Below are positions 10,175-34,944 of a DNA stretch of 64,000 nucleotides, piece after piece. Origin of the DNA: Inonotus obliquus (taxonomy: Eukaryota > Basidiomycota > Agaricomycetes > Hymenochaetales > Hymenochaetaceae); assembly GCA_032164295.1 (NCBI GenBank), contig JAJHTX010000013.1, forward strand, positions 930,001-994,000. Reading direction: 5' to 3'. The translations under genes were made by a program, and so were the position numbers. Positions within the stretch are counted from its first letter, which is position 1. Each line of letters starts with the position of its first letter. The notes beneath the pieces are model-generated. The model was not told the DNA's origin, ran no database searches, and was given only the letters and a program-made list of their open reading frames with translations.

Positions 10175-11736
10175 TGTTAGAAAACGCTCGCCCTAAAGGG
10201 ACTATACAGTAACCACAGTAGGATGGTCCGCAGTGTTACGGGTTCGGCGATGCTTTTCTAAGAGTTTCCGGAGCCTACTCGGTTTTCACAAGCAGGGCAG
10301 ATTCCCAAGTATACTAAGTGTTGCCTCAGACGCTCTCGTTTATCTGATCAAGTTGAGCCTTAACTTCGTTGACAGGCTAGTAGGACAGGTAACATTAACT
10401 CCTGCCGTTCGCAAGCTTCTCTAGTCAATGGGCGACTAATCAATCGTTCCACGCCGTAGAGTAAGAGAGGTTAAGCAGATTAGGTGGTCTTCAGATTAGA
10501 AGCTAGATGCCTAAGAGGACTCGATGTACAAGACGATCGAAAGAAAGATAGGGAGCTACGGTCTAAGTCTACAACTATTTATACTCTCCCCTCATGTTGT
10601 GGACGGACCACTTCCTACGCTCCGTAGTTCCTACTCTCGATCTGATTCGTTATTCTAGCTTCCAAACTCGTGCGGTATTCCTATTGTTCTGCTGCGGATT
10701 GACTCATCGACTGCGCCCTGTGCAAGGCGATGACTCAGCGTTGACTCATCTTGACTTGAACTGAATTGAAACCTATGCTCGGGGTCGGCCCTGTGCATTG
10801 AGTGAGTCAGTGAGTGAGTCATTGAATGCGTGTTCGTATGCCATTGGTTTTGCATGGCTGCGCGGTAGTTAAAGTTCGCTCGTCCGCAGTTGCTCGTGCA
10901 TTCAAGGAATTCCGTCGGGGTTCCGTTGTATAGCATCTGGGGCTATGAAGGCTGTGATTGGCTTGTCGCCTCGGGACTCTTGTTCGGGGCCGTCAAGTGT
11001 GATTCGACATCGGATATCATCGTGGGGAAACCAAGGTGGTTTAACGTAGGTGCCTATGGCGATGAGTAGCCGTACACTTCGTCGAGTATCGTTCGAAGGT
11101 ATTCTCCAGCCTAGGTATAGGTCTCCTTGTAGTCGAATAGCTTTGCAGTATGCCCATAGTTCCCTGAGTGTGTTTGCAACCCATGCTGCTGTTATCGGTG
11201 AGCGGCGGTTTGTAACATAGTCTGCACTGATCTCCACGAATGTGCTTGGGCACTCGAGTGCTAATATGTTGTGGATTCCTACTATTGTCCAGTGCGTCTT
11301 TGATTGCATGCCTATTGCCGTATCCATTGCTATTGTTGACCTCGTGCGATTTCGAATGATCTCCGGGGGATTGTGGTATTCTCGATAAGCTGTTGCTCGT
11401 TCGCTGGACACATGATAAGTCAACATGCCCGTTGCCTCCCGTAGTATTATCTTGTGTAGGTCTTCGATGATCTGTCGCACTCTTCTGCATTTATAGCAAG
11501 CCGTTGGAGGTTGCTGTACTTGCTGCATCATTTGCGAAGGTTTAGTGTGATCGTCGGGATTAGCGTTGCTAGCCGATGCTTCTTGATCGTCGGCTTCGGA
11601 TTGTATTAGATTTGCGTGTTCTCCGCTTCTCGCTGTCGATCCTGATCGTCTCCGGCCAGTGAAATTAACCGGTCCCATCCGGGGTAGTTTCGATCGGCGT
11701 TCCTAATCGAATCAAAATTTCAGCACAATCCTTTCA
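10175..11736 (-). mobile_element. Solo LTR with 5-bp target duplication AACGG
   Basis: A 1562-bp segment with TG...CA termini sits between exact 5-bp direct repeats AACGG (10170-10174 and 11737-11741). Rejoining the flanks restores the GGGCAA minisatellite. No internal retroelement sequence is present, so it is best read as a solo LTR left by LTR-LTR recombination. Orientation is taken from the ORF inside, which starts 58 bases from the LTR start and occupies the first half. This is the same layout as the LTRs of element B. Confidence 0.75.
10902..11678 (-). CDS. LTR-encoded protein of the solo LTR (258 aa)
   Basis: Intact ATG-to-stop ORF inside a solo LTR. After a polar N-terminal 55 residues there is CYKCRR, then LREATG, then WTIVGIHNILALE, then VEISADYVTNR and AAWVANTLRELWAYCKAI. 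The same order (CNTCR, IREIT, MMIGIRNVAQEG, VDVDIAYKRD, AWGHWIMNYI) is found in the LTR ORF of element B. The similarity is weak but collinear over about 130 residues. I recognise no known domain; CxxC may bind metal but lacks a partner pair. Retention of an open frame in a solo LTR is notable. Function unknown. Confidence 0.55.
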   Translation of the reverse strand: MGPVNFTGRRRSGSTARSGEHANLIQSEADDQEASASNANPDDHTKPSQMMQQVQQPPTACYKCRRVRQIIEDLHKIILREATGMLTYHVSSERATAYREYHNPPEIIRNRTRSTIAMDTAIGMQSKTHWTIVGIHNILALECPSTFVEISADYVTNRRSPITAAWVANTLRELWAYCKAIRLQGDLYLGWRIPSNDTRRSVRLLIAIGTYVKPPWFPHDDIRCRITLDGPEQESRGDKPITAFIAPDAIQRNPDGIP

Positions 11737-14504: not shown

Positions 14505-14663
14505 TATACTGTTCCTAGACATGTACATTACTCAAGGTCATCCACCTTAGACGTACGTCGCCGACGACTGTGTACTCCCCCAAGACGCAGTAGAGGTTGT
14601 CACTAGACGACCTTTGTGAGAACAGGCCTCGAACGTGCACTGCCACCTCGTCCGTCCTAACAT

Positions 14664-14674
14664 AAGAGTCGAGT
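14664..14674 (+). other. Primer-binding site of element A (self-priming type)
   Basis: AAGAGTCGAGT, one base inside the 5' LTR. It does not begin TGG as a tRNA site would. It is perfectly complementary over 11 nt to the predicted RNA 5' end within the LTR. Confidence 0.7.
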
Positions 14675-14813
14675 CTCCCCTCAGGACCGACGTCTGACTC
14701 GTCATCAACGTCTCTCCTTTGCGAGCGCCCCCTAGCAGGTCGATATCGCATCAACCCGAGTTTACCCGAGCACGACAGAAACCCTCAACCCTGCCCGGCG
14801 ACGTTAACCAACG

Positions 14814-15125: not shown

Positions 15126-15409
15126 ACACTGGCGTTAACATTGATGTTGCATTTTAGAGACAACTGTATCTGGACGAAGCGGACAGACGAAGTATACTGC
15201 AGTCAGCGTATCTCTTTTGTCATCCCCCTCTGGATTTTTAAAGTCACCATCTCCTTCGACGACACAATCCCTGCTCGTCGGCAACAACAACAGATTCATC
15301 CTCTCCCCGTCAGACCGCCACAATAGATACCGTATCGGAACGTGCACGTCAGCGTCTCAGTCAGCTTAGACAAGGGAGGTACAGTGCGAGTCGTCAAGGT
15401 TTCTACTAT

Positions 15410-16777
15410 ATGACATCCACTGGAACCGACCAGCGTGTAGTTTGGGACCAAGCCAAGGACAACTGGGTACACACACCGACAAGTGTTCCAGCTCCCATCT
15501 CATCCTTCGCCCCAACCTCGTCGACAGCTGCGAGATTCTCAGCCCGCGAAGAACCTGAGGAACCAACTGTAGGAGCATTCGATCCTCCTCAAAGTATCAT
15601 ATCTAGACCACCGTCGACACACGAACCTGCTCTACCCCCTGAGAAACCTATTAACGTTGAACCTCCTGAAGACAAAATGTCGCACCTCACAGCAGACGTG
15701 ATCGCAGCAATTGTCGCCCAGGCCCTGGCACAGGCAGGAGTCGGACAGCCAAGGACGCCGACAAATGCACCAACAACAATGTCGACGGACAATCCATCTG
15801 TTGACAAACCAAGGCAGTATCATGGAGGCAACGAATACGAGGACTTCCGTCGGGAGTTCATATTGTACATCTCGGAGAATCCAGGGAGGTTTGGAACGGA
15901 TGTCAACCGAATCAAGTTCGTATTATCTTATCTGAAGTCAGGACGAGCTTCGACGTGGGCGCAAAACTATGTCGACCAAAACACTGCAGCTGATGGAAGT
16001 TCGACCATCCCTGATGACTTCGGGAAGTTTATCAGAGCTCTAGACGCGTCCTTCAGAGATCCCCATAGAGCATCCAAAGCGTTGGCACAAATCTACATGG
16101 AAGTACAGGGACGTCGTACGGCTGACGAATTCTTCGACGTCTTTGAGCAACTAAGGATCTCAGCGGGACTTGTCAAGGAGGAACATGACGCTGTCCTTAT
16201 CCATCGGCTGGAACAAGCGGTCAATCCTGATGTCCTTCGAGGAGTAATGCGGGCAGAAAAGGTACCGGTGAAGTACGACGAATGGAAAGTGAAAGCGCTA
16301 GCCGTTGATGCAGTAGAGCAACAACTTCGAAAGCAACTACGTCCGAATCAACCACCAGCGCGAACCTTCCCCCCTCCTCCTCAAACTCAGTATCGTTGAC
16401 CCCCAGGACCCCCACCCCAACAACAGCAGTCACAACCACAACGCCCCCCGTTGCAGGCACAAGGAGTAAAGCCGGGTACACACCCTGGAATAGGGATTCC
16501 AATGGAAGTCGATGCTGCTCATCGTCGTCTGCTTTGCTGGGCATGCAGAAAGCCTGGACACTTTGCAAGTCAATGTCCGGACAAAAAACAGGTAGTGCGA
16601 CAAATCATTGTGGGAATGGACCCGACGATTCGTAGGGAGATGGCGGAACAGCTTGGTGAGCTGCCAGAATCAGCCTTTGTCGAAGAAGAATACAGCGAGG
16701 AAGTTGTGGAGGTTAGGGCTACGACCGAGACCGAGGGCGTCAACGTCGAGCAGGATTTTTCGGAAGACCAGCAGTAA
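15410..16777 (+). pseudogene. gag: gag of element A, one in-frame TGA
   Basis: Capsid-type gag: a Pro-rich leader, then YHGGNEYEDFRREFILYI, FVLSYLKSGRASTWAQNYV and YMEVQGRRTADEFFDVFEQL (retrotransposon gag domain), then a zinc knuckle CWACRKPGHFASQC (CX2CX4HX4C). The frame is broken by TGA at 16397-16399 (YR*PPGPPPQ) and otherwise continuous; the context CGT TGA CCC suggests an original CGA. The frame is open for about 40 codons upstream of the chosen ATG (15410), so the start is uncertain. The C-terminus (VEQDFSEDQQ) overlaps pol. Confidence 0.85.
16753..16759 (+). promoter_or_regulatory. Putative -1 frameshift heptamer, element A
   Basis: GGATTTT, read G GAT TTT in gag phase, 16 bases before the gag stop. 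Pol is open in the -1 frame across it. The same heptamer in the same phase occurs in element B. GGAUUUU is the known slippery site of dianthoviruses. Confidence 0.5.
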
Positions 16778-19700
16778 ACGTCGTAACTACTGGTCAACAT
16801 TCTCAAGGACTCTCGTCTTCGCTAAATTATAACTCGTGTGCTGTACAGTATTTAGATGCGCATCAATACACCGAGTTAAAAAATCACGAGATCCTGAACG
16901 ACGTAATACCCACCCCCGAAAGAGAAGACGACCTAGACATCGATGACTACGATGATGCATGGATGTGTGACAGAGGTGTACAGCCTAAGGAGGAGGAACC
17001 AGAAGCCGTCTTTGTGCGGCGAACGAATGGATACCAACTGGACGTCATCGTAACCATCATTCATCCCTTAGATCGGCAACTGACTCCCGAAGATAAACAG
17101 GAGATGCAGCAGCTGGACGGAGAAGAATACGATACGGACAGATTGGAGTTGGATGCACATGCGCTTATTGACTCTGGAGCAACGGGTTCTCTCATCGACG
17201 AAGGATTCGTCGAAAGGTACAAGATCCCCACCAAACGCTATATTTGTCCTATACCACTCTTTAATGCTGATAGAACTGGCAACAAGGAGGGTTCAATGAC
17301 GGATTATGTGGAGGTACAGATGATCTTCGATGGAATACATGAGGAAACTATTCGTCTAGCAGTAACATCCCTAGCGTTGACTAACGTCTTTCTTGGATAT
17401 GACTGGTTACGCAAACACAACCCGGAGATTGACTGGAAGACAGGAGTCATGTCATTTACTCGTTGTCCGGAGACATGTTGGTCCATGGAAAAGGAGGTGG
17501 AAGAGTATCGTAAGAAGCAGGTCAGAGGAGCGACGAAGTGGCCCGAGTACCTCGACAAGTTTGCAGACGTCTTCAGTGAGGAGAACTTTGAAAAGTTGCC
17601 AGAGCATCGTGTTTGGGACCACGCCATTGAACTAAAGGCGGACTTCAAACCAAGCGACTGTAAAGTATACCCTCTCAACCCAAAGGAACAACAGGTGTTA
17701 CAAGAATTCATCGACGAAAACCTTGCCTCAGGACGCATTCGACACTCGAAATCTCCCATGGCGTCGCCGTTCTTTTTCATCAAAAAGGAAGATGGTTCCC
17801 TCCGAGCGATTCAGGATTACAGGAAGCTGAATGAAGGGACCATCAAGAACAAATATCCACTTCCTTTGATCCAAGAACTGGTCGACAAAGTCCGGGATTC
17901 TTGCTATATCACGAAGCTCGATGTTCGTTGGGGATACTACAACATTTGAATTCGGGAGGGTGACAAGTGGAAGGCTGCGTTTAGGACTAACCTGGGATTC
18001 TTCGAACCGACGGTTATGTTTTTTGGTTTAACTAATGCGCCAGCTACGTTCCAAGGGTTCATGAATGACATCTTCAGGGAACTAGTACACGAGGGACACG
18101 TCATCATCTACCTCGACGACATACTTATCTTCTCCGAAGGGCAAGACGAACACCAACGGCTAGTCAAACGAGTATTCGAGGTCTTACGAAAGAACAACCT
18201 GTACCTCAAACCTCAGAAATGCGAGTTCGAAACAGACCACGTCAAATACCTCGGTCATATCATCGGCAACGGAGTAGTAAAGGTGGATCCGAAGAAATCC
18301 AAGGCGATTCAGGAGTGGCCGGTGCCGAAGAACTTAAAAACGTTACAGGAGTTCCTAGGGTTTGGAAACTGGTTACGACGATTTGTCAAGGATTACAGCG
18401 AGATTGTTAAACCACTCACGAAACTAACGGGAAAGGTAGAATGGAAGTGGGACAAAGAAGAACAGGCTGCCTATGAGGAGCTCAAGAAACGTCTATGCGA
18501 ACCACCCGTACTTGCCATTCCGAACAACGAAGGAGCGTTTAGAATCGAAGCGGATGCATCGAACTATGCAACTGGAGGAGTACTACTACAGGAGCAAGGA
18601 GGCAAGTGGAAACCAGTGGCGTATAGGTCGAAAACGTTGTCAGATGCTGAACGAAATTACGAGATCTATGACAAAGAGATGCTCGCGATTGTACAAGTTC
18701 TTAGGGAATGGTGACAGTATTTGCTAGGAGCTCATCAACATTTTGAAGTCTGGTCGGATCACGCTAATCTCCTCTACTTCAAGTCACCACAGAAACTGAA
18801 CTACCGTCAGGCAAGGTGGCGACTCGAACTAGCTGATTATGACTTTACGTTGATTCACAAAGCAGGAACGTCGATGGGCAAAGCTGACCTCCTGTCAAGA
18901 CGAGCGGACTATGATAAAGGTGAACATGATAATGAGAACATCATCTTCATCAAAGAAGACTGGTTAGTACAAGGAGTGGTGCAGACATCGCAGGAGGATG
19001 TGTTGGAAAGGGTACGGAAAGCGCAGCAGGAGGTGAAGAAGAGACCAAAGGGAGTAGTACCGAAGGATGGGTGGTTAAAGCTAGGAAACGTCATCTTTGT
19101 GCCGAACGACGTGAAAGAGCTTGTGTTGAAGGAGTACCATGACTCACCAATGGCTGGGCATCCTGGGACGACAAAGACCATCAACCTCATTCGTCGAAAG
19201 TTCTGGTGGCCTACGATGTTCTACGACATCCGTACATATGTCAAAGGATGCGACAAGTGTCAAAGGATGAAGGCTACAAGGGCAACGAGAGCTAGGAGTC
19301 TGCACCCGAACGAAGTACCTGACAAGCCATGGGAAATCGTCACTGTCGATTTGATTGGAGAGTTACCAGAATCCGAAGGATACAACGCTATCTGCATAAT
19401 TGTCGATCGCTTCAGCAAACAGATACATGCGGTACCAACTACAACGAAGCTGACAGCTGAAGGAATGGCTAGGATTTACAGGGATCATGTCTTTCGTCAT
19501 CATGGACTACCACGCAAGATTATCCACGATAGAGGGACCCAGTTTGACGCTAAGATGATGAAGAAATTGTACAAGCTCCTACACATCGAAGGGAATCCAT
19601 CGACGGCGTATCACCCACAGACGGATGGACAAACCGAGCGGGTTAATCAGGAGCTGGAACAGTACCTTCGACTATATGTGGATCATCGACAGTCAGACTG

Positions 19701-20508
19701 GGCAAATTGGTTGGCTATGGCTGAATTCGCATACAACAACCGGGAACACTCAGCAACGAAGATGTCCCCTTTCTTTGCAAATCTGGGTAGGAATCTAGGC
19801 GACTTTTCGGACATTGCGACGTCATCCTCGAACATGGTTGCTGAAGACTTTGCGAAACAGATCAAGGAGACCCACGAGCTAGCTAAAGAAAACCTTCAAA
19901 AGGCAGCTGACGACATGAAGAAGTACCACGACCATCACGTAGGAAAGTCCATAGAATTCGAACCAGGAGACAAGGTATTTCTGGACGGACGAAATATCAA
20001 AACGACGAGGCCTACGAAGAAGATGGAGGACAAGTGGTATGGACCTTACGAAGTCGTAGAGAAGGTTGGAGCTGGCGCGTACAAACTCAAGTTACCCAAG
20101 ACGTGGAAGAAGATTCACCCTGTCTTCAACGAAATCCTACTGAAACCCGCGGTCGAGCCCTCGTTCGAATCTCAGAAAAAAGCACCTCCACCGCCACCTG
20201 TTCTCGTTGATGAAAAAGAAGAATACGAGGTTGAAGGAATACTCGATTCACGACTACATCGACGGAAGCTACAATATCTGGTAAAGTGGGTAGGATATGA
20301 GGAAGCAACCTGGCAACCAGAGTCGGACCTAGGAGACAATGCGAAGGAAGCTGTCAACGAGTTCTACCAAAAACACCCAGGAGCCCCTCGAAAACTCACG
20401 ATACCTCAATGGTCGTTACGACAAATCTTTGCGTATACAGAACCTCCAGATCCAGTGAACAGTTGGAAAGGAAAACCCATGGTTGATCAACCAGGACTGC
20501 TGGCATAA
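16759..20508 (+). pseudogene. pol: pol of element A (PR-RT-RH-IN-chromodomain), two in-frame TGAs
   Basis: One continuous frame (-1 to gag) apart from TGA at 17947 and 18712. Domains: protease ALIDSGATGSLID; RT with LDVRWGYYNI, the FGLTNAPATFQ motif and VIIYLDDILIF; RNase H (FRIEADASNYATGGVL); integrase with HHCC zinc finger (H...HPGTTKT...CDKCQ) and catalytic core VDLIGELPESEG, IHDRGTQFD, TDGQTERVNQELE. The C-terminal chromodomain is EYEVEGILDSRLHRRKLQY to YEEATWQPESDL. The interrupted codons fall at NI*IREGD and REW*QYL, where relatives have Arg. Chromodomain places it in the chromovirus clade. Confidence 0.92.
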
Positions 20509-20545
20509 ACGTTGGTCGGGACGCCCAACCTTAAAGGGGGGGTGA

Positions 20546-21102
20546 TGTAAGAACACTTTTCCTTTTTTGTCCTTTCTTATTTTTCATATTCCATTATATT
20601 ACTAAGTTCCTTTCATTACTAATACCTTATGACTCCCTCCGCCCCATCCCGCTATATTACTAATACTACATTACTAATTCTGCCCCAACCCGATGACGCT
20701 TACTCACCCTTACTCATTCTTGCTTACTCGTCGGGCCCCGTTGTTTGTTTGTTTATATTGTTATGCTGCTGCGCAGCACCTTCTTAGAGTAATACCTTCC
20801 TACGTCTCATGTGTATATAAGTAGATAGATCTCGTCTCGTCTTCCCCACTCGACTCTTCTACTTACCACCACGACGTCTTAGGTATTCCTCTCTTGTACT
20901 TACTTAGTTTATTCAATCTACTTACCACCACGATGTCTTAGTCATATACTGTTCCTAGACGCGTACATTACTCAAGGTCATCCACCTTAGACGTACGTCG
21001 CCGACGACTGTGTACTCCCCCAAGACGCAGTAGAGGTTGTCACTAGATGACCTTTGTGAGAACAGGCCTCGAACGTGCACTGCCACCTCATCTGTCCTAA
21101 CA
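20546..21102 (+). repeat. 3' LTR of element A
   Basis: 557 bp, TGTAAG...CTAACA, preceded by the polypurine tract ending at 20545. Uninterrupted, and therefore the reference for the split left LTR. Confidence 0.88.
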
Positions 21103-23492: not shown

Positions 23493-24958
23493 TGTTTATC
23501 TCCGTGGAGGGTTCGTTGATTCTTGATCGACGGACCAATCTGGCTAATTCCTCGGTTTGAGGGGTTAATCCAAATTCTACAATACTGGTTATGGAATTGC
23601 TAATCACCTTAGTGGACTGTGTAGCTGATCCGATCTGAAACAACTAGCAACTAACTAATATTGCAGTTGAACCTGATACTATAATCGTACAGTATTAAGT
23701 CGGCGTGAAGACGCGATTGTTATACTGATTGTTATTCACGATAAGGGAATATCGGGAATCGCACTACGTTGTGAGTAGCTCGTACCGTGCAGACAATAGG
23801 GAGAACAATCTAGTTGCAATCCGTATTTTTAGCTTCACTTCGATTTCACACAATCGGTTTAGTTCAGCCGTGTCGCTACTGGTAATTTACTGGCTCGCAA
23901 GTAATTGATGTTACGATTTAACTTAGGGACTTATGGTAGGGTCCCTTGACTTGGATTAAACTGCTAGGTCGGCTCTACGATGGCCTCCTTATAATACTAA
24001 TTTACATGTGTGACGTTACTACCTTGTTACTTACTGTTTATGGTATTTTATCTGTTTCTTCCTTTATGATACCTGGTCCGTGCTTTCTCTTTACTTCCTT
24101 CCTCATTTCACTACCTCTGTGTTACTAGCCTCTCTTTGATTAGTTTAGTGTAGTGGGCGGTACCATCTTGTAGATAGGTTTGATCCTTGTGTAGGTAACG
24201 GCACTTGATCTAATTCAGCTATTCTAGGTAATTGCTGAGTCATCTGTTCTTGTATTTCGGGTCTCGTTGGTATCGGTAGGATCGGTCGTGGTACAGTCAG
24301 CCAGTTTCGAATAGTTTGCACTCGTGTATATCCTGGCGTTGTCCTGGCGCGTTGTAGGTTTATCCCTTGTACTCCTTGTAGGTGTATTACTCCGCCGTAC
24401 TGTTCTACCTTTATTTCCATTATGGTATATCCATAAGGTAATCCTCGACTTATGTAATTCATTATCCAATGCCCCCAAGCATATGCAGTTCTCTCATTCG
24501 TTCCGGTTTGGTCTCGCTTGTAGGCAATGTCGACATCTACTATAGCTGCGTCGCATCGTTCGTGTCTTCCTTCCTGTGCTACGTTTCGTATTCCGATCAT
24601 CATTACAAAGCATCCGGCGTCGTAGGATAATACTCGTATCTCCCTTTCATAAGCCTTTTGCATTTGTTGGTTAGGGTCGTAGGTTAGTTCTACAAATCGA
24701 CGTCGTATCATTATGTCGGCTTGTCCGTTCATTATGTCTCCGTAAGTGATCTCTCTGATTAATTCTCGCATTAGTCCTCCAGCTAGTTCTTTAGCAGGGC
24801 GGCACGTGTTGCAACATCGTAATATATTGCTTCGCGGTGTCGGAGGAACGATAGGCTGTTCTAGTACTTGTATTACTGCCGCTAACCGCTCTTGTATCCA
24901 ACGTAGGACGCTCATAGTTATTGGCTTATTAATGATGGATAATACTACCTTTCTAACA
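23493..24958 (-). repeat. 3' LTR of element B
   Basis: 1466 bp; element sense TGTTAGAAAGG...GATAAACA. Differs from the 5' LTR at 24149 (C/T) and at two positions near 24848-24852. Confidence 0.9.
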
Positions 24959-25038
24959 CTCCCCCTTCTAGGAATGCATCTGACATAATCATAAGGAATG
25001 CATGACACATATTCTTTATTCATAATTCTTAAGCCCAT
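24145..25038 (-). CDS. Element B ORF5: 297-aa protein crossing PPT into 3' LTR
   Basis: ATG at 25038, in the internal region. The frame passes through the polypurine tract (encoding CIPRRGSVRK) into U3, where it continues as the 256-residue LTR ORF starting MSVLRWIQERLAAVIQVLEQ. Features: CCNTCRPAKE, IREITYGDIM, MMIGIRNVAQEG, VDVDIAYKRD, YAWGHWIMNYI, and a Pro/Gln-rich tail ending STRWYRPLH. No signal peptide or membrane span. The ATG lies six bases after the stop of ORF4 (TAG CTCAAA ATG), so termination-reinitiation is possible. The layout, an ORF overlapping PPT and U3, parallels lentiviral nef and MMTV sag by position only; no homology is claimed. Function unknown. Confidence 0.7.
   Translation of the reverse strand: MGLRIMNKEYVSCIPYDYVRCIPRRGSVRKVVLSIINKPITMSVLRWIQERLAAVIQVLEQPIVPPTPRSNILRCCNTCRPAKELAGGLMRELIREITYGDIMNGQADIMIRRRFVELTYDPNQQMQKAYEREIRVLSYDAGCFVMMIGIRNVAQEGRHERCDAAIVDVDIAYKRDQTGTNERTAYAWGHWIMNYISRGLPYGYTIMEIKVEQYGGVIHLQGVQGINLQRARTTPGYTRVQTIRNWLTVPRPILPIPTRPEIQEQMTQQLPRIAELDQVPLPTQGSNLSTRWYRPLH
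24959..24970 (-). other. Polypurine tract of element B
   Basis: AGAAGGGGGAG in element sense directly abuts the TGTTAG start of the 3' LTR; it would prime plus-strand synthesis. Confidence 0.75.
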
Positions 25039-25044
25039 TTTGAG

Positions 25045-25476
25045 CTAAAATTCTTCTACATTTGACGACCATAACTGAATGTCCACCCATATTTCGTCGT
25101 CTGCGTTCTGTTCTTCTTCTAGCGCTCTCTCCAGCGCTGCTCGATTTACTAACTCGTTTCTCATTTGTTCTCTCGCGGTCCTTCTTATCTCGTAGATTTC
25201 GTTTAATTGTTCCGGCGTCCAGTTATCGAAAATAAACTCGTCGTCGGTCCAGAACGTTTCGTGATCCCAGTGTGCTGGGTCGTTCGCTGCTGGCCAGTTT
25301 GCTCCCCACGTAGAGATGTCTCCCCAATCTTCATTTGAGGGCGCTGTTACGTTTGCCCATAGTTCTTCTTCTTGCGCCATTTGTTGCTCGGTTGGCCAGG
25401 GGATGAACGGCATCGGTATGTAATCGTCATCTTCATCTTCATCTTCATCTTCATCTTCATTTCCGTTCGCAAACAC
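25045..25476 (-). CDS. Element B ORF4: acidic protein
   Basis: Open frame of at least 143 codons with a (DE)n run encoded by a GAAGAT microsatellite, then MPFIPWPTEQQMAQEEELW and several Trp-rich acidic segments (DISTWGANWP, HWDHETFWTDDEF). The first ATG is at MPFIPW, about 22 codons in; the frame is open further upstream to about 25550, so a spliced start is possible. Very low pI. It lies between the small membrane ORF and ORF5. No family recognised. Confidence 0.5.
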   Translation of the reverse strand: MFANGNEDEDEDEDEDDDYIPMPFIPWPTEQQMAQEEELWANVTAPSNEDWGDISTWGANWPAANDPAHWDHETFWTDDEFIFDNWTPEQLNEIYEIRRTAREQMRNELVNRAALERALEEEQNADDEIWVDIQLWSSNVEEF

Positions 25477-25532
25477 TATCGGGTTTTGGTCTACGCCTTC
25501 TTCAGGCGGGTGATTTAATTCCTGATAGCTGG

Positions 25533-25676
25533 TTAACGGTTGCTATCTCTCTTATTGTAATGATTGCGCACCTGTCTCCCTATCCAAAATTGCATTCTCC
25601 ATTGTATTATCAGACTCATCATGATGACCAATCCAAACACTACTATCGCGAGTACAAGTTCTACGGTTTTCGACAT
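25533..25676 (-). CDS. Element B ORF3: 47-aa single-pass membrane peptide
   Basis: ATG at 25676 to TAA at 25535-25533. Begins MSKTVELVLAIVVFGLVIMM, a strong transmembrane helix, followed by a basic tail (RMQFWIGRQVRNHYNKRDSNR spread over the last 21 residues). It starts 95 bases after the pol stop. Its stop overlaps the start of the open frame of ORF4. Short, so it could be fortuitous, but helix plus basic tail is a coherent membrane-anchor pattern. A GTGCGC inside could be a splice donor joining it to ORF4. Confidence 0.4.
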   Translation of the reverse strand: MSKTVELVLAIVVFGLVIMMSLIIQWRMQFWIGRQVRNHYNKRDSNR

Positions 25677-25770
25677 TTTCGTTCGGCGTTGGTACTCGTG
25701 TTTAGGGTTCTGATGGCGGTGGTGAAAGGAATTGATAAGGATACTGGTATCTCGTCGGCGACTCTTTTCT

Positions 25771-28700
25771 TTATATACCCTGTTCCTCGTGTGAACCTGT
25801 AGGTTTCCGCTTCGTTAACCGTCTACTTCTTTGCCGGATGCGGCCTCCGTCCTTATCTCCTTCTATGGCATGATCAGGATTCACCCTGATGTTGTCGTCG
25901 TCTTCCTCCCAATGTTGTTCCTTGGATAGTGGACTTTTGACTCTTTGGTAGGTTTCTTCTAGATTACCCGTTCTCGATGAACCACTAGGATTGGTGCGTA
26001 ATGGGTTGTTTTCGTCATACGCGAAATCCTTTATTTTTATCGGGTTCCTGGTATTTATCATCCTTCTCTTGGCTGTTCGTTTTCCTTTCTCTTCGTTTTT
26101 TTCGTTATTCCTTCTAATCCATCCGTCGATGTAATTTGGCTTCTCCGCTTGTGGGTGTTTCTGATAGTATTCCTCGATCTTTTCCGTGGCGTTTCCTAGG
26201 TTCCCCAATGGTTCCCATGAGTCGTGTTCTGCCCCGTATCCCTTCCAATTTATTAAGAAGTAATATTTCCGTCCTGTTTTCCTTGAATTTAGTACTCTCT
26301 CTACTTCGTATTCGTCGTCCTCTATAATGACTGGATTCGAAGGTACTTCTTGGTCTTCCGTGGTGTTATCTACTATTCTATCTTGATATTTAATAAGATT
26401 GCCTGCATATAATACTGGATGTATGCGCATCTTCTTTGGTAATTCTAGTTCATAATTCAATGGCCCATGTTGTTTGATTATTCTATATGGTCCTAAATTC
26501 TTCGGCCCTATCTTCCTGCTGGGTACTACTATATTGTAGTTTCTAGCGTCTATCATTACCTTATCTCCTACCTTGAATTCTAATTCTGCTCTTCTATGTT
26601 TATCGGTGTATCTCTTCATTTGTTCATTTGACGCCATCAGCGCCTGTTCTGCTTGTTTCTGTACCTCCCATACCTTTTTAATATATTCTTGTGCGTCTGG
26701 TGCGTTCGCTTGCCCCATGGGCAATATTTCCAATTTCCTTCCATAAAGGAGTTCAAATGGTGACTTCTTTATTGCTGCGTGTACTCTATTATTATAAGCA
26801 AATTCTGCCATGTGGATGTACTGCGCCCAGTTATCTTGCGCTGTGTTTACGTAATGCCTTAAGTATTGTTCTAGTTCCTGGTTTACTCTTTCGCTTTGCC
26901 CATCTGTTTGTGGGTGATGTGCCGTGCTAAGTGCATTGTCGATATTCATGGCTTTATATACTTCTTGTGTAAAGTTGCTTGTAAACTGTGGACCTCTGTC
27001 GCTAGTAATTCTTTCTGGTAGTCCGTGTTTCGTAAATACGTGGTCCAATAGCATCTTCGCTGTTTTCTTACTGTCTGTTTCTTTAGTACAGGGAATAAAC
27101 GTTGCTATCTTTGAAAACCGGTCTACTACCACTAGCACCGCATCATAGCCCTCGCTTTCTGGAAGTCCTGTAATGAAATCCATGGTGATATGTTTCCATG
27201 GTCCCATTGGTATTTCCAATGGTTTCAGTGGTGGTTGTGTTCGTCCCCTCCTAGGTTTGTTCTTTTGACAAATGTGGCATGATGCAACATATTCCTTTAT
27301 TTCTTCTTTCATCTTCGGCCACCAATAGATTTCTTCTATTGCCGCTATCGTCTTGTCCGTTCCTGGATGTCCGCTCATTGGTGAGTCGTGGAAGGTGTAT
27401 AATACATCCCTTTTCCGATCCTGTCCGGGCATTAATTTATCGTTTGGCGGTACCATTCCCTCGCTCGTGCTGTTTCTAGCTTGTCGATCAAATATTTTTG
27501 GGTTGACGAATCTTTCTCTTGGTAATACGATCACGTCCTTGTTATCATTCTTTCCTTCGTCATATCCTGATCTTCTGGATAGCGCATCGGCCCTCGTGTT
27601 CTTGCTTCCTGGTCAATAATCAATTTTGAATTGATATCTACTTAGTACGTCCGTGACCCATCGGGCCTGTTTTCGTCTGACTCGTTGTGCTTTCATGAAG
27701 GTTTTCAGGTTCAACGCGTCGCATAGTACCATGATGGTATGTTTCGCTCCTTCTAAATGGTGTCTCCAGGTAGTTAGGGCGATTACAATTGCGTACAGTT
27801 CCTTTTCGGATACTGGCCAGTTCCTTTCAGTTGTTGTAAAGGATCTCGTGAGATAGGCAATAGGATGTAGTTTTCCTTCGTGTTCTTGTGATAATACTGC
27901 TCCCATGCCATAGTCCGATGCATCTGTTTCTACTACGAAGGCTTTATCATAGTCTGGTCTTCTTAGTATTGGTCCTGTGATTACGGCCTTTTTCAGGGCT
28001 TCAAACGACCTTTGTTGCTCTTCTCCCCACACAAAGGCTTGTTTCTTGGATTCTAGTTTCTTCATCGGCCTTGCTATTGCTGCATAGTCCTTGACAAATT
28101 TCCTATAGAAATTACAAAATCCTGTAAACTTTTTTATATCTCGTTTGTTTTGCGGTACTGGCCATTCTTCTATTGCTTTGAGCTTGTACGGGTCCATTTT
28201 TAATCCGTCCTTATTTACTATGAATCCTAAGTAGTCTAATTCTTGCTTGTTAAAGAAGCATTTTTCCGGTTTCAGATAGAAGTCTGCTCTTCGTATTCGA
28301 GCTAGTACTTTCCTCGTCTTTTGTAACAGTTCTTCCTTTGTTTCAGCATAGATAATGATGTCATCTAGATAAATCATCACTCCATGGTTCAACATGTCTC
28401 CAAATAGTTCGTTCATAGCTCGTTGAAAGACTGCTGGCGAATTCATCATTCCGAATTGCATTACCAATGGTTCAAATACTCCTTTATGTGTTCGGAATGC
28501 GGCCTTATGTTCGTCTCCTTCTTGGATTCGTATATTATTGTATCCTGATCGAAGGTCTAGCGTGGTGAACCATTTGGCCTTTCCCAAATTGTCGGGTAGC
28601 GTGTGCATAATGGGTATCGGGTATTGATCTACTTCACAAACTGCATTTACTGGTCGGTAATCTATTACCATTCTTGCCCCTGCATCCTTCTTTCCGACGA

Positions 28701-30336
28701 AGAATACCGGCATTGCGTACTTTGAAGTGGATCTCCTGATCCATCCTTTTGCCAAATTGTCTTCTATGAATTCTTCCACTGCCTTTTGTTCTAGTGGCGT
28801 TAGCGGATAAATGGTTCGTTTCGCTGTTGGTTCCTGTCCTTCTTTAAACACTATTTTCATATCCCATTGATTGTGCTTCGGTAGCCGTTTTGAATTGTTC
28901 TCGCTAAATATTTCCCCGAAATCCCATAGCTCCTTAGGCACCAAGGATTTCCAATGCTTAGTCGTTCCTATTTGTGATCGTCCTTGTTCCCTTGCTTTTT
29001 CCTGGGAGTACTTTTGTGCCATACTGCTATACTTATTTAATTTCTTAATTGCGGTTGTTTCCTGCTCGGTCCTTTCCTTTTTCATCCTGCTGTTTCGGCT
29101 ATAATCCCGGTTTTGGGGTTTTTGATCGTTTACTTGTACAGTTATTCTCATGTTTTGGTCGTATACCACCTCTTCTGGTTTAGTTTTGTTTTCCCGGGCC
29201 TTTTGGTAACTCGTTTTCCTCTCTCTAGTTATTCTACTTCCGCCTTGCCCTACTTGGTGCATTTTTGGCGGTGGTTGCGGTGGTAATCTTTTACTCGGTG
29301 TTTCCCCGGATATTATTTGTTCTATGCTTGGGAGTGCTATTTCCGTTCTTTCTGGTGATCTCGGCGGGTCTTCGAGATTTGTTTCCTCTAGTCTTTGCAG
29401 TTCTTCAGCTAATTTCCCAAAGTTTCTCAAGATTTGTTCTTGGAATTCGTCCCTTTCTTCCGTAGTTTCTTCTACTTCTTCGACTTCCTCTGGGTCGGAT
29501 TCGATTCCTTCTTGCAACTCCCTATACTGCATTACTGGTGCTGGCAATACTGTGACATCCTTAGGCGTTAGTGTGGTTGGCCGTATTCCTTCTGGAGGCA
29601 CCACAATCACCGCGGTTTGTACGGACCTTGGTGGTGGTGTCGGTAAATTCCCTAAGCTTGCCTTTCCCATGGTATTCCACCTTATTGTTAATCCCGTGTC
29701 TCCTTCGGATTCGGACCCTTCTTCGGAGTCTCTTCGCAGTGGAGATCTAATTTTACGGGATTTTCTTCTTCTTTTCTGTTGATATCGAGCCATTCTTTCC
29801 ATCGTTATCATACTCCGAGTTCCTAACAGCTTGGCTTCCCCAAATCTAGTTGTTACCTTACCCGTTTCCCAGTTTATGACTGGCTTATAGTTAGCTATCC
29901 AATCATTTCCTAATAAAAATTTGTCTCCTGTAGTTTCTACTACTGCGAGTTCCATATTTCCTCTTGATGCTCCGGTATCCACCCATGCTCTAACGCTTTC
30001 CTTCCACCCGTTATTCGTTAGCGTTCCATCTGCATTTCTAATTTGGGCAGGATTCTGTTTCTTTATCGTATCTAGTCCATATCGTTTGACGGTATTGGGA
30101 CTAATCGTTGTTAATACTGATCCTGAGTCGATCATTGCTGTTATTGGTAGGTTTCTCTTTCCCCCCTGACTGAGGTATATCCTCAGTTTTGGATGATCGG
30201 TATTTGGTTTTACCGGGGTCGTCCATCGGCGTTTCCATTTCGCTTTTACCCGCGACCATCTTCCTTCTGGTTTCGGTATGGTCCCTTTTCTTGCGCGCTG
30301 ATCAGCCGATTCGATCAGTCGCTTTCTTGAAAATCC
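25771..30336 (-). pseudogene. pol: pol of element B (PR-RT-RH-IN-chromodomain), one in-frame TGA
   Basis: Open in the -1 frame from the heptamer at 30336. Protease ITAMIDSGSVLTTISP; a long linker rich in Glu/Arg/Pro; RT with LDLRSGYNNIRI, FGMMNSPAVFQRAM and VMIYLDDIIIYAE; RNase H (VVETDASDYGMGAVL). Integrase has the zinc finger (HPGTDKT to CHICQKNK) and core MDFITGLPESEG, TSDRGPQFTS, TDGQSERVNQELE. Chromodomain EYEVERVLNSRKTGRKYYF to HDSWEPLGNLG. A TGA at 27615-27613 interrupts FKIDY*PGSKNT, where Gypsy RTs have Arg. Otherwise uninterrupted. Confidence 0.92.
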
Positions 30337-31253
30337 TCTTTAGGTTCTCTTTCTTTCTCGTTATCGCTAGCTTCGTTGGAGCCTTCATATTCCGATTCTT
30401 CTCCTATCAATCTTCTCTTGAATTTTTGATAGCCCGGTCTACTCGGAGGTTTTCCTTCTCGTGGTTTCACTCTGCATTCTCTGGCAATGTGACCTGGTTT
30501 ACCACATCTGTAACAACCCGTCGTATTCTTCGGTTTTTGGTTACTCCGGTACCTGGGTTTTCCTTTATTAGTCCTCTTCCTGAATTTTCGTACGTCTACG
30601 TCCATTGGGACTACATCGTCTTTTCTCCTCTGGGGTTTTTCCCAGTTGCTCGTGAAGGTCTTAGTTCTTGCCTTGGCGCCATATCTTGCGCCTTCTAGTG
30701 CTACTGCTCTGCTCATCCAGTTTGCTAGCGTCCATTTCGCGCTTTCCGTTTGTCCTGCTAATTGCGCATAAATATAATCTTTCATCCCTCTTCTGTATAA
30801 TACTGTAAGTGCCTTATCCGGTCATACTGCCTTATCTAATTCTGATACTATCTTTCCGAAATCGCTATTGTACTGCAATATGGAGCCTTCTTGTACAATA
30901 TTTACTAATTTATTCATTGCATCTTCTACAGGGTCGTAGTATTGTTTGTGGTTACTCCTTATGTAGGTCAAGAATTCTTCAAACGTTTCCCATACTTGCC
31001 CTTTTCCTATCATATCTAGCGGATTTGTTTTTAACGCTGTGCTTACCCACGTGGCAGCCTTCTCTTCCATGCATTGGCACATGATATAGGCTTTGTTACT
31101 ATCTGTTAGTGCCGCTTGTTTGTTGCTCTGATTTTGTGCATCCATCCATGCAAAATTACTAATCATTTTATTTATAAATACATCCACGTTCTCCTTATCT
31201 CTTCCTCTAAACTTCGGTGGTTTCTGCGACATACTCATTTGTAGGCTCGTCAT
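30315..31253 (-). pseudogene. gag: gag of element B, one in-frame TGA
   Basis: ATG at 31253 (MTSLQMSMSQKPPKFRGRD). Retrotransposon gag domain (VDVFINKMISNFAWMDAQNQ, WETFEEFLTYIRSNHKQYYD). TGA at 30824-30822 (LDKAV*PDKAL), then ALTVLYRRGMKDYIYAQLAG and a zinc knuckle CYRCGKPGHIAREC. It ends EDFQESD at 30317-30315, overlapping pol. Its start overlaps the end of ORF1 by 47 bases in another frame. Confidence 0.88.
30330..30336 (-). promoter_or_regulatory. Putative -1 frameshift heptamer, element B
   Basis: G GAT TTT in gag phase, immediately upstream of the gag stop, with pol open in the -1 frame. Same heptamer and phase as in element A. Confidence 0.5.
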
Positions 31254-33226
31254 CTTCGCTTGAATCCCAAGTCAATCGGTCTCTAAGTTCTTGTTCCGAG
31301 ATTTCGAGTTCCGCTGGGTCGAATTCTAGTAACGCTAAATGCCTTCGATAATTGTCTTCTAGGTATTCGTCCTCTGTAGTGTTGCTACTATGGGCTTGAC
31401 TAACGTCGCTGAATGGGCTGGAGAATTCTTCTGAATTGCCACTGGTCGTGGATCCTGGGGAATAATACAATACCAACCTTCCTCTCGTTTCTACCTCTTC
31501 AATTATCCCCTGTTCTCGTTCGGTTTTCTGGACTTCTCTGGTTTCTTCTTTCCTATTGTTCGCTTCCCTTTGTTCTTGGATTCGACCTATGATTCCTTTA
31601 GCTATTCTGTCCTGATCTGCTTTTCGATGATATTTGCGACTAATGGTTATTGTTGGGATTTGTTCGTTTGTCGGTTTTAGTTCTTCTTGTAGCTCTGTAA
31701 TTACTTCCTCGACTATCTCGTTTATGTTTAACCTAGCCAATCCTCGCAGGTCTATGCGGACGTTCCCTGTCTGATCTCGAGTAACGTTAATGCCGCTTGG
31801 TAGTCTTCTCCCGTTATCAAATGTAACCCTGGAGGTACTACTTTCTTGGTTAATGCCTTCTTCTTCCTCCGTGATTGTAGTTAGGTTCTCACTTTCGTTC
31901 TGGGCCCTGAAGTCGACTACGTGTAATTGTATCTCTCCTTCTTCCGGTTCCTCGTCTGGAATAGTGGGAATTGGCGAGTCTGGGTGCCTGTAACTTTCGT
32001 CTCCGTTGAAGTCCCTAAACCCGTTTGGTTCTGAATTTGCCCAACGGCTCCCTGTTCCCCACTCTCCTCCGTTCTGCTCCGATTCGTTCGGTGATTCCCA
32101 ACTGGCTTCGGACTGAGTTAGTTCCGGCGTTGGTTGATCTTGATCGTCTCCTAATAACGATCCGACGGTGTTCCAGTCTTGTTGGATTTCCGTTTCCTCT
32201 CGCTGTCTTTCTTCTCCTTCCCACGCGGCGAGTGCGACTCTGATATCCGACACTTGATTCCTTAGGCGTAGGAAGTTTGTCTCGATGCGGCTTACTTTAT
32301 CTAATAATTCGCGCTGAAATTCGGCGTCTCGGTGTTCTCGGGCAGTCCACCGCTCTATGTGCTCTTCTTGCCTTCGTTGTAGCGTTTCGAAGGTATGTTG
32401 TACTTCTCTCGTTATGGTCCTGAGGATGCCTAGCTCTGTCTGGTTGTACCTTACTAACGTTCTGGTGATATGGTGTGCCTCGTCGTTACTCCTGTGCCAG
32501 CGGCTATGTTTCTCGATATGGTGATTGAACTGATGGTCTAGGTACACTCCCAATGCTTGATCCTTTTCAGCCTGCGTGTTGAGGATTAGTTCGATCCTTC
32601 CGGCCAATCGGTCCACTTGCGTTCCAATGGCAGTTGAGTAGTGATATATCCCCCACTGCGTTGCGTAGGGTTCGTAAATAGACAGGTATTGAAGTAGTCT
32701 TGTTCCTCGTCTGAGCGCACTTGCGATCGCTGTCCTATAGTAGATCGTACCAAATATGAATACTGTAACCAGCCCCGCGTATATTCCTTCGTAAGCCACT
32801 ATAGTTATATTTAATTATATATTCGATTTTTTGTGCTTATACTTTACTTGCTTTTGCTTTCTCTTTCTTTCCGTTAAGTAGGGCTAGTAGTATTCGGTGT
32901 AATAGGTTGGCGTGTGCTTGCGCGGAGTACAACGTTCCTCCTCCGTTTTCTAGTGCTCTCTTAAATACACTTTCGTGTGGTGTAGGTGATACCTTGCCTA
33001 TAACCCTTCCTGTCCTGAAATGATCCCAGTAGAGATCTTGCCAAATTGGTTGCCTCGCTATTAGTTTCCATGCGTCTATATCCTTCGGCGCTCCTCGTTC
33101 TCGTTCCTGCGTTTGTTTTGTACGCTCCAATGTTAACCCAACCTGTGGTTCTAGGTTTCGGTGGTTGTTACTGATGTCTATTTGCCGTTCCAGGTGGCCT
33201 ACTGATTGGATAAGGGAATTATTCAA
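31207..33226 (-). CDS. Element B ORF1: spliced membrane protein upstream of gag
   Basis: Two open frames, 33226-32848 and 32798-31207, joined by a 49-nt intron (GTAAAG...ACTATAG). The splice forms A|TG, giving KAKA-M-AYEGIYAGLVTVFIF in frame. The first exon is soluble and basic (RTKQTQERERGAPKD, WQDLYWDHFRTG). The second begins with a membrane helix (GIYAGLVTVFIFGTIYY), then a His/Glu-rich coiled-coil-like stretch (DALGV-type heptads to RRQEEHIERW), then a long acidic disordered C-terminus. Total about 656 residues. No ATG was found for exon 1, so another upstream exon or translation from the splice-created ATG is required. No homologue recognised; position before gag is unusual for Gypsy elements. 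Confidence 0.5.
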
Positions 33227-33312
33227 TTAGTCTATTTGAATGACTAGTTCGTGCTATCACAATTACCTTTATTGGCAGTAGTCTGCGCTTGTTCCTTTAA
33301 GCTTGCCAAGAA

Positions 33313-33326
33313 GGGAGTTTAATCCA
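33313..33326 (-). other. Primer-binding site of element B (self-priming type)
   Basis: TGGATTAAACTCCC starts two bases inside the 5' LTR. Its first 11 bases are exactly complementary to AGTTTAATCCA at 33798-33788 in the LTR. A tRNA primer ending ...AATCCA cannot be excluded. Confidence 0.65.
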
Positions 33327-33787
33327 GATGTTTATCTCCGTGGAGGGTTCGTTGATTCTTGATCGACGGACCAATCTGGCTAATTCCTCGGTTTGAGGGG
33401 TTAATCCAAATTCTACAATACTGGTTATGGAATTGCTAATCACCTTAGTGGACTGTGTAGCTGATCCGATCTGAAACAACTAGCAACTAACTAATATTGC
33501 AGTTGAACCTGATACTATAATCGTACAGTATTAAGTCGGCGTGAAGACGCGATTGTTATACTGATTGTTATTCACGATAAGGGAATATCGGGAATCGCAC
33601 TACGTTGTGAGTAGCTCGTACCGTGCAGACAATAGGGAGAACAATCTAGTTGCAATCCGTATTTTTAGCTTCACTTCGATTTCACACAATCGGTTTAGTT
33701 CAGCCGTGTCGCTACTGGTAATTTACTGGCTCGCAAGTAATTGATGTTACGATTTAACTTAGGGACTTATGGTAGGGTCCCTTGACT

Positions 33788-33829
33788 TGGATTAAACTGC
33801 TAGGTCGGCTCTACGATGGCCTCCTTATA
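33788..33829 (-). promoter_or_regulatory. TATA box and predicted RNA start of element B
   Basis: TATAAGG (33829-33823) lies 31 bases upstream of AGTTTAATCCA (33798-33788), the 11-mer complementary to the PBS. This matches the spacing found in element A. Confidence 0.7.
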
Positions 33830-33980
33830 ATACTAATTTACATGTGTGACGTTACTACCTTGTTACTTACTGTTTATGGTATTTTATCTGTTTCTTCCTT
33901 TATGATACCTGGTCCGTGCTTTCTCTTTACTTCCTTCCTCATTTCACTACCTCTGTGTTACTAGCCTCTCTTTGATTAGT

Positions 33981-34751
33981 TTAGTGTAGTGGGTGGTACC
34001 ATCTTGTAGATAGGTTTGATCCTTGTGTAGGTAACGGCACTTGATCTAATTCAGCTATTCTAGGTAATTGCTGAGTCATCTGTTCTTGTATTTCGGGTCT
34101 CGTTGGTATCGGTAGGATCGGTCGTGGTACAGTCAGCCAGTTTCGAATAGTTTGCACTCGTGTATATCCTGGCGTTGTCCTGGCGCGTTGTAGGTTTATC
34201 CCTTGTACTCCTTGTAGGTGTATTACTCCGCCGTACTGTTCTACCTTTATTTCCATTATGGTATATCCATAAGGTAATCCTCGACTTATGTAATTCATTA
34301 TCCAATGCCCCCAAGCATATGCAGTTCTCTCATTCGTTCCGGTTTGGTCTCGCTTGTAGGCAATGTCGACATCTACTATAGCTGCGTCGCATCGTTCGTG
34401 TCTTCCTTCCTGTGCTACGTTTCGTATTCCGATCATCATTACAAAGCATCCGGCGTCGTAGGATAATACTCGTATCTCCCTTTCATAAGCCTTTTGCATT
34501 TGTTGGTTAGGGTCGTAGGTTAGTTCTACAAATCGACGTCGTATCATTATGTCGGCTTGTCCGTTCATTATGTCTCCGTAAGTGATCTCTCTGATTAATT
34601 CTCGCATTAGTCCTCCAGCTAGTTCTTTAGCAGGGCGGCACGTGTTGCAACATCGTAATATATTGCTTCGCGGTGTCGGAGGAACAATGGGCTGTTCTAG
34701 TACTTGTATTACTGCCGCTAACCGCTCTTGTATCCAACGTAGGACGCTCAT
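33981..34751 (-). CDS. U3-encoded 256-aa protein in the 5' LTR of element B
   Basis: Same protein as the LTR part of ORF5, starting at the internal Met (MSVLRW) 43 bases from the LTR start and lying wholly in U3. Intact ATG to stop in both LTR copies. In the 5' LTR it lies upstream of the predicted RNA start, so it would be expressed from there only by another promoter; the 3' copy is inside the element transcript. Confidence 0.65.
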   Translation of the reverse strand: MSVLRWIQERLAAVIQVLEQPIVPPTPRSNILRCCNTCRPAKELAGGLMRELIREITYGDIMNGQADIMIRRRFVELTYDPNQQMQKAYEREIRVLSYDAGCFVMMIGIRNVAQEGRHERCDAAIVDVDIAYKRDQTGTNERTAYAWGHWIMNYISRGLPYGYTIMEIKVEQYGGVIHLQGVQGINLQRARTTPGYTRVQTIRNWLTVPRPILPIPTRPEIQEQMTQQLPRIAELDQVPLPTQGSNLSTRWYHPLH

Positions 34752-34944
34752 AGTTATTGGCTTATTAATGATGGATAATACTACCTTTCTAACAATATGT
34801 AAGTCGGACTATAGCAGGTATTTTCATGGAGATACAAGACTTGTTTTCTTATATTAAATATCATTAAGCATACATGTATACTTGTAAAACACATGAGGTC
34901 AGAAACTCCAATTTGTTTTGTGATATTATGCTGTACTTCATTGG

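What the first reader, a model, noticed from the sequence alone, without database searches (positions are those of the whole stretch)
23493..34794. An LTR retrotransposon whose U3 encodes a protein, with an ORF crossing the polypurine tract
In element B a 256-codon ORF fills most of U3 in both LTR copies and is intact in both. In the 3' copy the same frame extends upstream through the polypurine tract to another ATG (297 codons). This is the genomic position of lentiviral nef or MMTV sag (established), but I know of no such arrangement described for a fungal chromovirus and cannot search. Two near-identical LTR copies alone do not prove selection; the second family member (next finding) does more.
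Basis: partly seen in the sequence, partly recalled or inferred. Interest (0 to 1): 0.9.

Follow-up and report, generated by a model that had tools for sequence, protein, structure and literature searches.

The report
Fungal retrotransposon gene inside its LTR
A family of jumping genes in what looks like a wood-decay fungus carries a selected, protein-coding gene inside its terminal repeats, the place where HIV keeps nef, and relatives in the same genome do the same, which I did not find described for fungi in the papers I could search.

Summary
Element B (minus strand, 23493-34794) is a chromodomain Ty3/gypsy element with 1466-bp LTRs and a 5-bp target duplication. A 256-codon frame fills LTR positions 44-814 in both copies; in the 3' LTR it runs through the polypurine tract (PPT) to an upstream ATG (297 codons). 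The frame is a gene: across 30 genomic copies dN/dS is 0.17, equal to the element's own integrase/chromodomain (0.17); its two indels are 9 and 15 nt, while the non-coding LTR has six of 1 or 7 nt. Forty-five of 64 long family-B copies show no in-frame stop. A sister family (C, 42-46% protein identity in four rows) has the same gene inside its LTR. An abundant third chromovirus family (D; solo LTR at 10175-11736) has a 258-codon frame in the same place, possibly a remote homologue. Just before the PPT, B also encodes a two-exon, membrane-anchored acidic protein under selection, with counterparts in C and D. The PPT-crossing start is not shared with C; the LTR-internal ATG is. No known family or fold matches. 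Likely a Nef-like accessory gene expressed from the 3' LTR; expression and mechanism are inferred.

The parts
33329..34794 (-). 5' LTR of element B, 1466 bp, TG...CA; TSD CATAT outside it
23493..24958 (-). 3' LTR of element B
24145..24915 (-). U3 gene (256 codons) in the 3' LTR; the copy at the 3' end of the genomic RNA (that position is inference)
   Evidence: selection
24916..25038 (-). in-frame N-terminal extension (41 codons) through the LTR start and the PPT; seen in family B
   Evidence: not in the family-C copy
33981..34751 (-). U3 gene copy in the 5' LTR
24959..24969 (-). polypurine tract AGAAGGGGGAG; the stretch before it (CAGATGCATTC.TAGA) is shared with family C
25572..25676 (-). 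predicted exon 1 of a second accessory gene: one N-terminal hydrophobic (membrane) segment, KD-19 2.83
   Evidence: dN/dS 0.286 in 14 copies
25522..25571 (-). predicted intron, 50 nt here and 49 nt in the other 13 comparable copies, GT..AG in all 14; family C has a plausible 47-nt intron at the equivalent place (read by eye)
   Evidence: C sequence printed
25045..25521 (-). predicted exon 2: very acidic (45 D/E, 6 K/R); spliced product 193 aa
   Evidence: dN/dS 0.155
25771..27456 (-). integrase plus chromodomain part of pol
27613..30135 (-). protease, RT, RNase H part of pol; this copy has one in-frame stop between the two pol parts, several sibling copies have a 1521-codon frame
30315..30785 (-). 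gag, zinc-knuckle part
30822..31253 (-). gag, Ty3-capsid-like part (below the Pfam cut-off)
10175..11736 (-). solo LTR of chromovirus family D, TSD CCGTT
10902..11678 (-). U3 frame of family D (258 codons), 58 nt inside the LTR start; at least 147 matches in the genome

Best explanation
Element B and its relatives are fungal chromoviruses with a retrovirus-like 3' gene block: gag-pol, a small membrane-anchored protein, the polypurine tract, then an accessory gene lying wholly in U3. Shown: the U3 frame is a gene under the same purifying selection as the integrase in family B; it lies inside the LTR in families B, C and D; the first ATG after the LTR start is its ATG in 30 of 30 B loci and 14 of 16 C loci; the membrane-protein gene is also under selection in B. 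Inferred: the U3 gene is expressed from the 3' LTR, at the 3' end of the genomic transcript, probably from a spliced or otherwise shortened mRNA, since gag-pol and the membrane-protein gene lie upstream. Replication then copies U3 to the 5' end, so each insertion carries it twice. Inferred with less confidence: the product is a soluble accessory factor with a cysteine-centred core (CxxC about 83 residues before a conserved Cys), an RRR motif shared by B, C and the outside relatives, and a disordered tail, that helps the element replicate against host control, like Nef-class or Rev-class proteins and not like an enzyme or capsid part. I put about 0.35 on nucleic-acid-binding or anti-silencing action specifically.
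For: dN/dS 0.166 for the U3 ORF in 30 copies, 0.173 in the 16 3'-LTR copies, against 0.172 for the IN C-terminus/chromodomain in 14 of those 16. Bootstrap CI 0.10-0.23 for B. Shifted frames of B above 1 except the antisense frame in which third positions coincide, 0.254. B variants shared by 3 or more copies: 41 synonymous to 18 non-synonymous over 179 and 586 sites. B against C: 44%, 32% and 61% differences at codon positions 1, 2, 3. ORF indels 9 and 15 nt only, non-coding 1 and 7 nt. 45 of 64 long B copies without in-frame stop. C ORF inside a paired LTR with an integrase between the LTRs. D ORF inside paired LTRs bounded by a PPT, with integrase and chromodomain. Membrane-protein gene: in 14 of 16 B copies the ATG, GT..AG and reading length (multiple of 3) are kept, dN/dS 0.286 and 0.155 for the exons; counterparts in one C and one D element. 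Six relatives in a 5.8-billion-protein collection, 34-46% identical.
Against: No transcript or peptide evidence was available. The structure model is weak (mean pLDDT 60, 7 sequences) and no fold match is significant, so the biochemical role is inference. The one family-C element read at both LTRs (L051, L059) has ATA at the shared start, so its own gene may be dead. Copies in 5' and solo LTRs lie upstream of the LTR's own transcript, so their expression is uncertain. Selection in D is only mildly stronger than in its shifted frames (0.47 against 0.61-0.82), and C shared variants are few (4 synonymous, 3 non-synonymous in 3 or more copies). Homology of D to B/C rests on weak statistics. One of 14 copies has a stop in the acidic exon (L014), and 2 of 16 have unrelated DNA in place of exon 1.
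Confidence: 0.85

Rival explanations
1. The U3 ORF is real but acts as a self-limiting or immunity factor: a trans-acting protein, also made from solo LTRs, that keeps copy number in check (as Ty1 p22 does; recalled).
For: 32 of the 64 long family-B copies have no same-strand partner at 5-26 kb, and copies without a partner such as L020, L021, L025 and L026 keep an open frame; of 147 D matches 115 are listed without a stop (hand count).
Against: Selection on the U3 ORF matches that on integrase, which fits a factor needed in every replication cycle; a copy-limiting factor should be lost by cheating copies (inference).
Confidence: 0.15
2. The biologically relevant product is the 297-residue form started upstream of the PPT, so the gene is not wholly in the LTR and the 5' copies are inert.
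For: 15 of 16 3'-LTR copies keep the upstream ATG in frame, and the 86 nt between the acidic exon's stop and the LTR show only two differences among 16 copies. A relative from another source, P0005, has an in-frame stretch before the shared start.
Against: In the family-C 3' LTR read, the homologous upstream frame ends in TGA TAA and the U3 frame has no upstream ATG. The shared protein similarity of B and C starts at the LTR-internal ATG, which is the first ATG of the LTR in 30 of 30 B and 14 of 16 C loci. The near-invariance is at the nucleotide level and PPT or splice signals would explain it.
Confidence: 0.15
3. Neutral or passenger ORF: an open frame kept by chance in young, nearly identical copies.
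For: The window copy is young (LTR pair 99.8%).
Against: dN/dS, in-frame indels, conservation to 42-46% in family C and 34-46% in P0001-P0006, and chance ORF length.
Confidence: 0.02
4. The B/C and D U3 genes are unrelated, captured twice, and share only their position.
For: hhalign probability 15% over 24 columns; BLASTP E 0.15; a plain BLOSUM62 global score is reached by 10 of 200 shuffles; integrase comparisons do not make B and D sisters (D-B 40%, D-A 45%, B-A 43%).
Against: Global profile alignment of the cores beats 300 of 300 shuffles (z 4.6), and 296 of 300 without the CxxC helix (z 2.3); windows were chosen after inspection. Shared CxxC, GI[RH]N and a following Cys (by eye), and the same gene order.
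Confidence: 0.35

Closest known systems
Lentiviral nef and MMTV sag (U3-overlapping accessory genes of retroviruses; recalled)
   Same: Accessory gene in U3 of the 3' LTR, after a membrane-protein gene, copied to both ends at each replication
   Different: No match to any Pfam family; host is a fungus; the elements are LTR retrotransposons with a chromodomain integrase; the gene lies wholly inside U3
Fungal chromoviruses (Tcn1, MarY1, Laccy and related clades; PMC2864245, passages read)
   Same: gag-pol order, integrase then chromodomain, PPT, short TSD
   Different: That survey reports one or two ORFs in the majority of elements and an additional ORF of unknown function in a figure legend; the passages I saw mention no LTR-located gene. 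I did not place B or D in a clade
Plant Retand/Tat-type elements with additional ORFs between pol and 3' LTR (PMC11963269, abstract and passages; PMC7264820, one passage)
   Same: Extra genes downstream of pol, of unknown function, compared by those authors with retroviral accessory genes
   Different: In Retand they are antisense and between pol and the LTR; here the gene is sense and inside the LTR
Cer1 CERV protein of C. elegans (PMC10309623, search listing with abstract start only)
   Same: Element-encoded accessory protein of an LTR retrotransposon
   Different: Not reported as LTR-encoded in the abstract start seen; no sequence comparison was made

Membership tests
Ty3/gypsy chromovirus | RT-RNaseH-integrase order with a chromodomain after the integrase | tested here: met
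   Pfam RVT_1, RT_RNaseH, rve, Chromo over cut-off in element B; Chromo in family D
Ty3/gypsy chromovirus | LTRs with TG..CA ends, PPT, short TSD | tested here: met
   (TSD CATAT)
Ty3/gypsy chromovirus | tRNA or self-primed primer binding site | not tested
   The sequence after the 5' LTR was printed but not matched to a tRNA
Nef (lentiviral) | gene overlapping the 3' LTR U3 | tested here: met
Nef (lentiviral) | sequence relationship to the Nef family | tested here: not met
   no Pfam family at E up to 1 for the window protein
Nef (lentiviral) | Nef fold | tested here: inconclusive
   weak model, no significant fold match
MMTV superantigen | sequence relationship to Sag | tested here: not met
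   no Pfam family at E up to 1
Retroviral or errantiviral Env (for the membrane-anchored protein) | large glycoprotein with signal peptide, fusion peptide and C-terminal anchor | tested here: inconclusive
   193 aa predicted in B with one N-terminal hydrophobic segment and an acidic remainder; 254 aa in D; no Pfam hit for the 122-aa part of B; no signal-peptide predictor available

The most novel reading that the evidence does not exclude
Basidiomycete chromoviruses carry an old, kept accessory module, a membrane-anchored protein plus a U3-encoded soluble protein, so a retrovirus-like gene complement with a nef-type LTR gene exists in fungi in at least two chromovirus lineages and in other species (P0001-P0006), and may serve to overcome fungal silencing or to move between hyphae.
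Probability: 0.35. Interest if true: 0.92.

Novelty: new variant of a known kind. Interest (0 to 1): 0.8.

Why it matters
LTRs are usually treated as non-coding regulatory DNA. Here they carry a selected gene that is duplicated at each insertion and stays open in many single LTRs, so repeat masking would hide a protein family with over 200 matches in one 36-Mb genome (125 and 147). It makes a testable case for accessory, host-facing functions in fungal retrotransposons, which are usually thought to live inside one cell.

Tried and rejected

Corrected on checking: one search listed four ORF indels (3, 15, 9, 15 nt), but two of them, next to the ORF start, come from my fixed-length cut, on whole LTRs, gives two (9 and 15 nt). 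One search used wrong coordinates for B's exon 1; one search has the right ones.

Selection on rows: dN/dS used 44 ORFs that passed a filter (open for 235 codons or more, spanning the core); broken copies were dropped, and the C loci fetched were chosen mostly among those listed without stops. Searches used all 30 first loci, skipping stop codons. The IN comparison and one search dropped 2 of 16 copies whose upstream DNA differs. The count of 64 B copies leaves out five shorter B-like fragments. 'No in-frame stop' does not count frameshifts. D used 12 of at least 147 copies. One search reports 802 of the 1000 shuffles made.
Full report
Observation. Element B lies on the minus strand at 23493-34794. 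Its two LTRs are 1466 bp with three differences, TG...CA ends and a CATAT target duplication. Gag (capsid-like and zinc-knuckle parts), protease, RT, RNase H, integrase and chromodomain were found by Pfam, the capsid part below cut-off. This copy's pol has one in-frame stop (840 and 613 codons in one frame), whereas several sibling copies have a 1521-codon frame around the integrase. The U3 ORF is intact in both LTRs. All three LTR differences fall in the ORF: two at third codon positions and one that changes Arg to His near the end. In 1000 Markov-1 simulations of this LTR the longest ORF was 185 codons; the observed one is 256.

It is a gene. A search of the window's own genome (36 Mb, 30 contigs) gave 125 matches. 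I counted 64 long family-B copies, leaving out five shorter B-like fragments: 45 have no in-frame stop (frameshifts not counted), and 16 same-strand pairs mark elements, 12 of them at 9.73-9.84 kb spacing. In the first 30 loci dN/dS is 0.166; in the 16 3'-LTR copies 0.173; in the integrase/chromodomain stretch of 14 of those copies 0.172. On the filtered set of 30 B ORFs it is 0.156 with a codon bootstrap of 0.103-0.229. The other five frames of that B alignment give 1.05, 1.53, 1.16, 0.25 and 2.02, with 6 to 31 stops per sequence; the 0.25 is the antisense frame whose third positions coincide with ours. On whole-LTR alignments of 30 copies the ORF has two indels, 9 nt (7 copies) and 15 nt (1 copy); the non-coding remainder has six, of 1, 1, 1, 1, 7 and 1 nt. 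B variants shared by at least three copies, which arose in replicating lineages, have a rate ratio of 0.134, singletons 0.213.

It is not confined to element B. Family C, 42-46% identical in the four rows aligned, has the ORF inside a paired LTR (1344 bp or more matched, 99.85% identical) with an integrase between the LTRs (C6:2454494). B against C differ at 44%, 32% and 61% of first, second and third codon positions. C itself has dN/dS 0.316 (0.218-0.451; 14 ORFs), shifted frames 0.44-1.11. A result against: the one C element read at both ends has ATA at the shared start (L051, L059), so its gene may be dead; the other 14 of 16 C loci have ATG there. One single-sequence and one profile search of 5.8 billion proteins found six relatives, 34-46% identical, from short unnamed contigs.

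Family D. A 258-codon frame at 10902-11678 starts 58 nt inside a 1562-bp solo LTR with a CCGTT duplication. The genome holds at least 147 matches, all listed ones at 94% identity or more; by hand count 115 of 147 have no stop. Many lie in pairs about 12.37 kb apart. For one pair I read the LTR start next to a PPT (GGAGGGGGGCGAG|TGAAAGG) and the end ...TCTAACA, an integrase in an 1808-codon frame and a chromodomain. dN/dS among 12 copies is 0.469 (0.31-0.71), against 0.61-0.82 in shifted frames: selection is indicated but less strongly. Whether D's protein is homologous to B's is not settled. BLASTP gives E 0.15, hhalign 15% over a CxxC-helix stretch; an HMM score is reached by 1 of 802 reported shuffles and a plain global score by 10 of 200; a global profile alignment of the cores beats all 300 shuffles (z 4.6) and all but 4 of 300 without the CxxC helix. 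Those windows were chosen after looking. Integrase comparisons do not make B and D sisters.

A second accessory gene. Between pol and the PPT, B has a 35-codon hydrophobic exon (KD-19 2.83) and an acidic exon separated by a predicted intron; the spliced product is 193 aa. In 14 of 16 copies (two have unrelated DNA there) all keep the ATG, GT..AG, and exon lengths that are multiples of three; the intron is 50 nt in the window copy and 49 nt in the other 13. dN/dS is 0.286 for exon 1 and 0.155 for exon 2; one copy (L014) has a stop in exon 2. The one C element read has the homologous hydrophobic exon (MSQLATVAVAITVFGAIVTTSLILQW, KD-19 2.22) followed by GTGAGT, with a plausible acceptor 47 nt on that I read by eye. 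One D element has a 254-aa single-exon protein with an N-terminal hydrophobic segment (KD-19 2.43) plus a further 338-aa ORF without a Pfam family over cut-off. Splicing is predicted, not shown.

The polypurine-tract crossing. In B the frame does cross it, and 15 of 16 copies keep the upstream ATG. In the C element the homologous nucleotides read into TGA TAA, and the U3 frame has no ATG upstream. The 86 nt between the acidic exon's stop and the LTR show two differences among 16 copies, which fits a cis signal (PPT, splice site) at least as well as a coding one. P0005, from another source, does have an in-frame stretch before its start. I take the LTR-internal ATG as the usual start and the crossing as a B feature of unknown use.

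The protein. No Pfam family. AlphaFold2 from seven sequences: two helices, four strands, a helix and three strands, then a low-confidence tail; mean pLDDT 60, pTM 0.61. Features kept in the B, C and outside rows that cover them are MIRRRF, YERE.R.LSYD, I.IRN, Cys 121 after a CxxC at 35-38, and D127/I130 (with the more distant rows some of these vary). Fold searches gave nothing significant. Net charge is +6 in B, +7 in C, +4 in D.

How it most likely works. Established knowledge of retroviral replication (recalled): only the 3' copy of U3 is in the genomic RNA. The gene is thus the last one on the genomic transcript and needs a shortened or spliced message; the U3 ATG is the first ATG after the LTR start in 30 of 30 B and 14 of 16 C loci, so a message starting or spliced near the LTR start would use it. 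Reverse transcription then places a copy at both ends. The protein's task is inferred to be accessory, since gag and pol are encoded elsewhere. Nucleic-acid binding or defence against silencing is my leading guess, at about 0.35.

Known or new. In the listed titles and abstract starts of searches (20 of 71 shown; 20 of 200; 3 of 3; 15 of 54; 14 of 14; none; 10 of 37) I saw no fungal LTR retrotransposon with an LTR-encoded protein; the library is open-access only and most subscription papers are not held. PMC2864245 (passages) surveys fungal chromoviruses and mentions an additional ORF of unknown function in a figure legend. PMC11963269 (abstract, passages) and PMC7264820 (one passage) discuss additional plant ORFs between pol and the 3' LTR and compare them with retroviral accessory genes. 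Nef and Sag are named from recall.

Noticed in passing
10175-11736 (-): Solo LTR of chromovirus family D with an intact 258-codon U3 ORF; at least 147 matches genome-wide.
   Followed up: yes
25045-25676 (-): Predicted two-exon gene for a small acidic protein with one N-terminal membrane segment, in env position, under selection in 14 copies; counterparts in one C and one D element.
   Followed up: yes
24959-25044 (-): 86 nt before the 3' LTR with only two differences in 16 copies, with a direct repeat of ATGCATTCCT.
   Followed up: partly
23493-24144 (-): The non-coding rest of the LTR differs by 1.5% among 30 copies while synonymous sites of the U3 ORF differ by 6.5%: cis constraint or recombination of U3 variants.
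   Followed up: no
L088 663-1679 (-): Family D has a further 338-aa ORF between pol and the membrane-protein gene, no Pfam family over cut-off.
   Followed up: no
12381-21102: Element A, another chromovirus with LTRs of about 558 bp and no long ORF in them; its 5' LTR is split by a 1.7-kb repeat that gave 43 matches in the genome, at 98-100%.
   Followed up: partly
54127-59853: Direct 2.3-kb duplication at 84% identity, not examined.
   Followed up: no
6676-7251 (-): ORF of a class II (versatile/manganese type) peroxidase, pointing to a white-rot-type basidiomycete host.
   Followed up: partly
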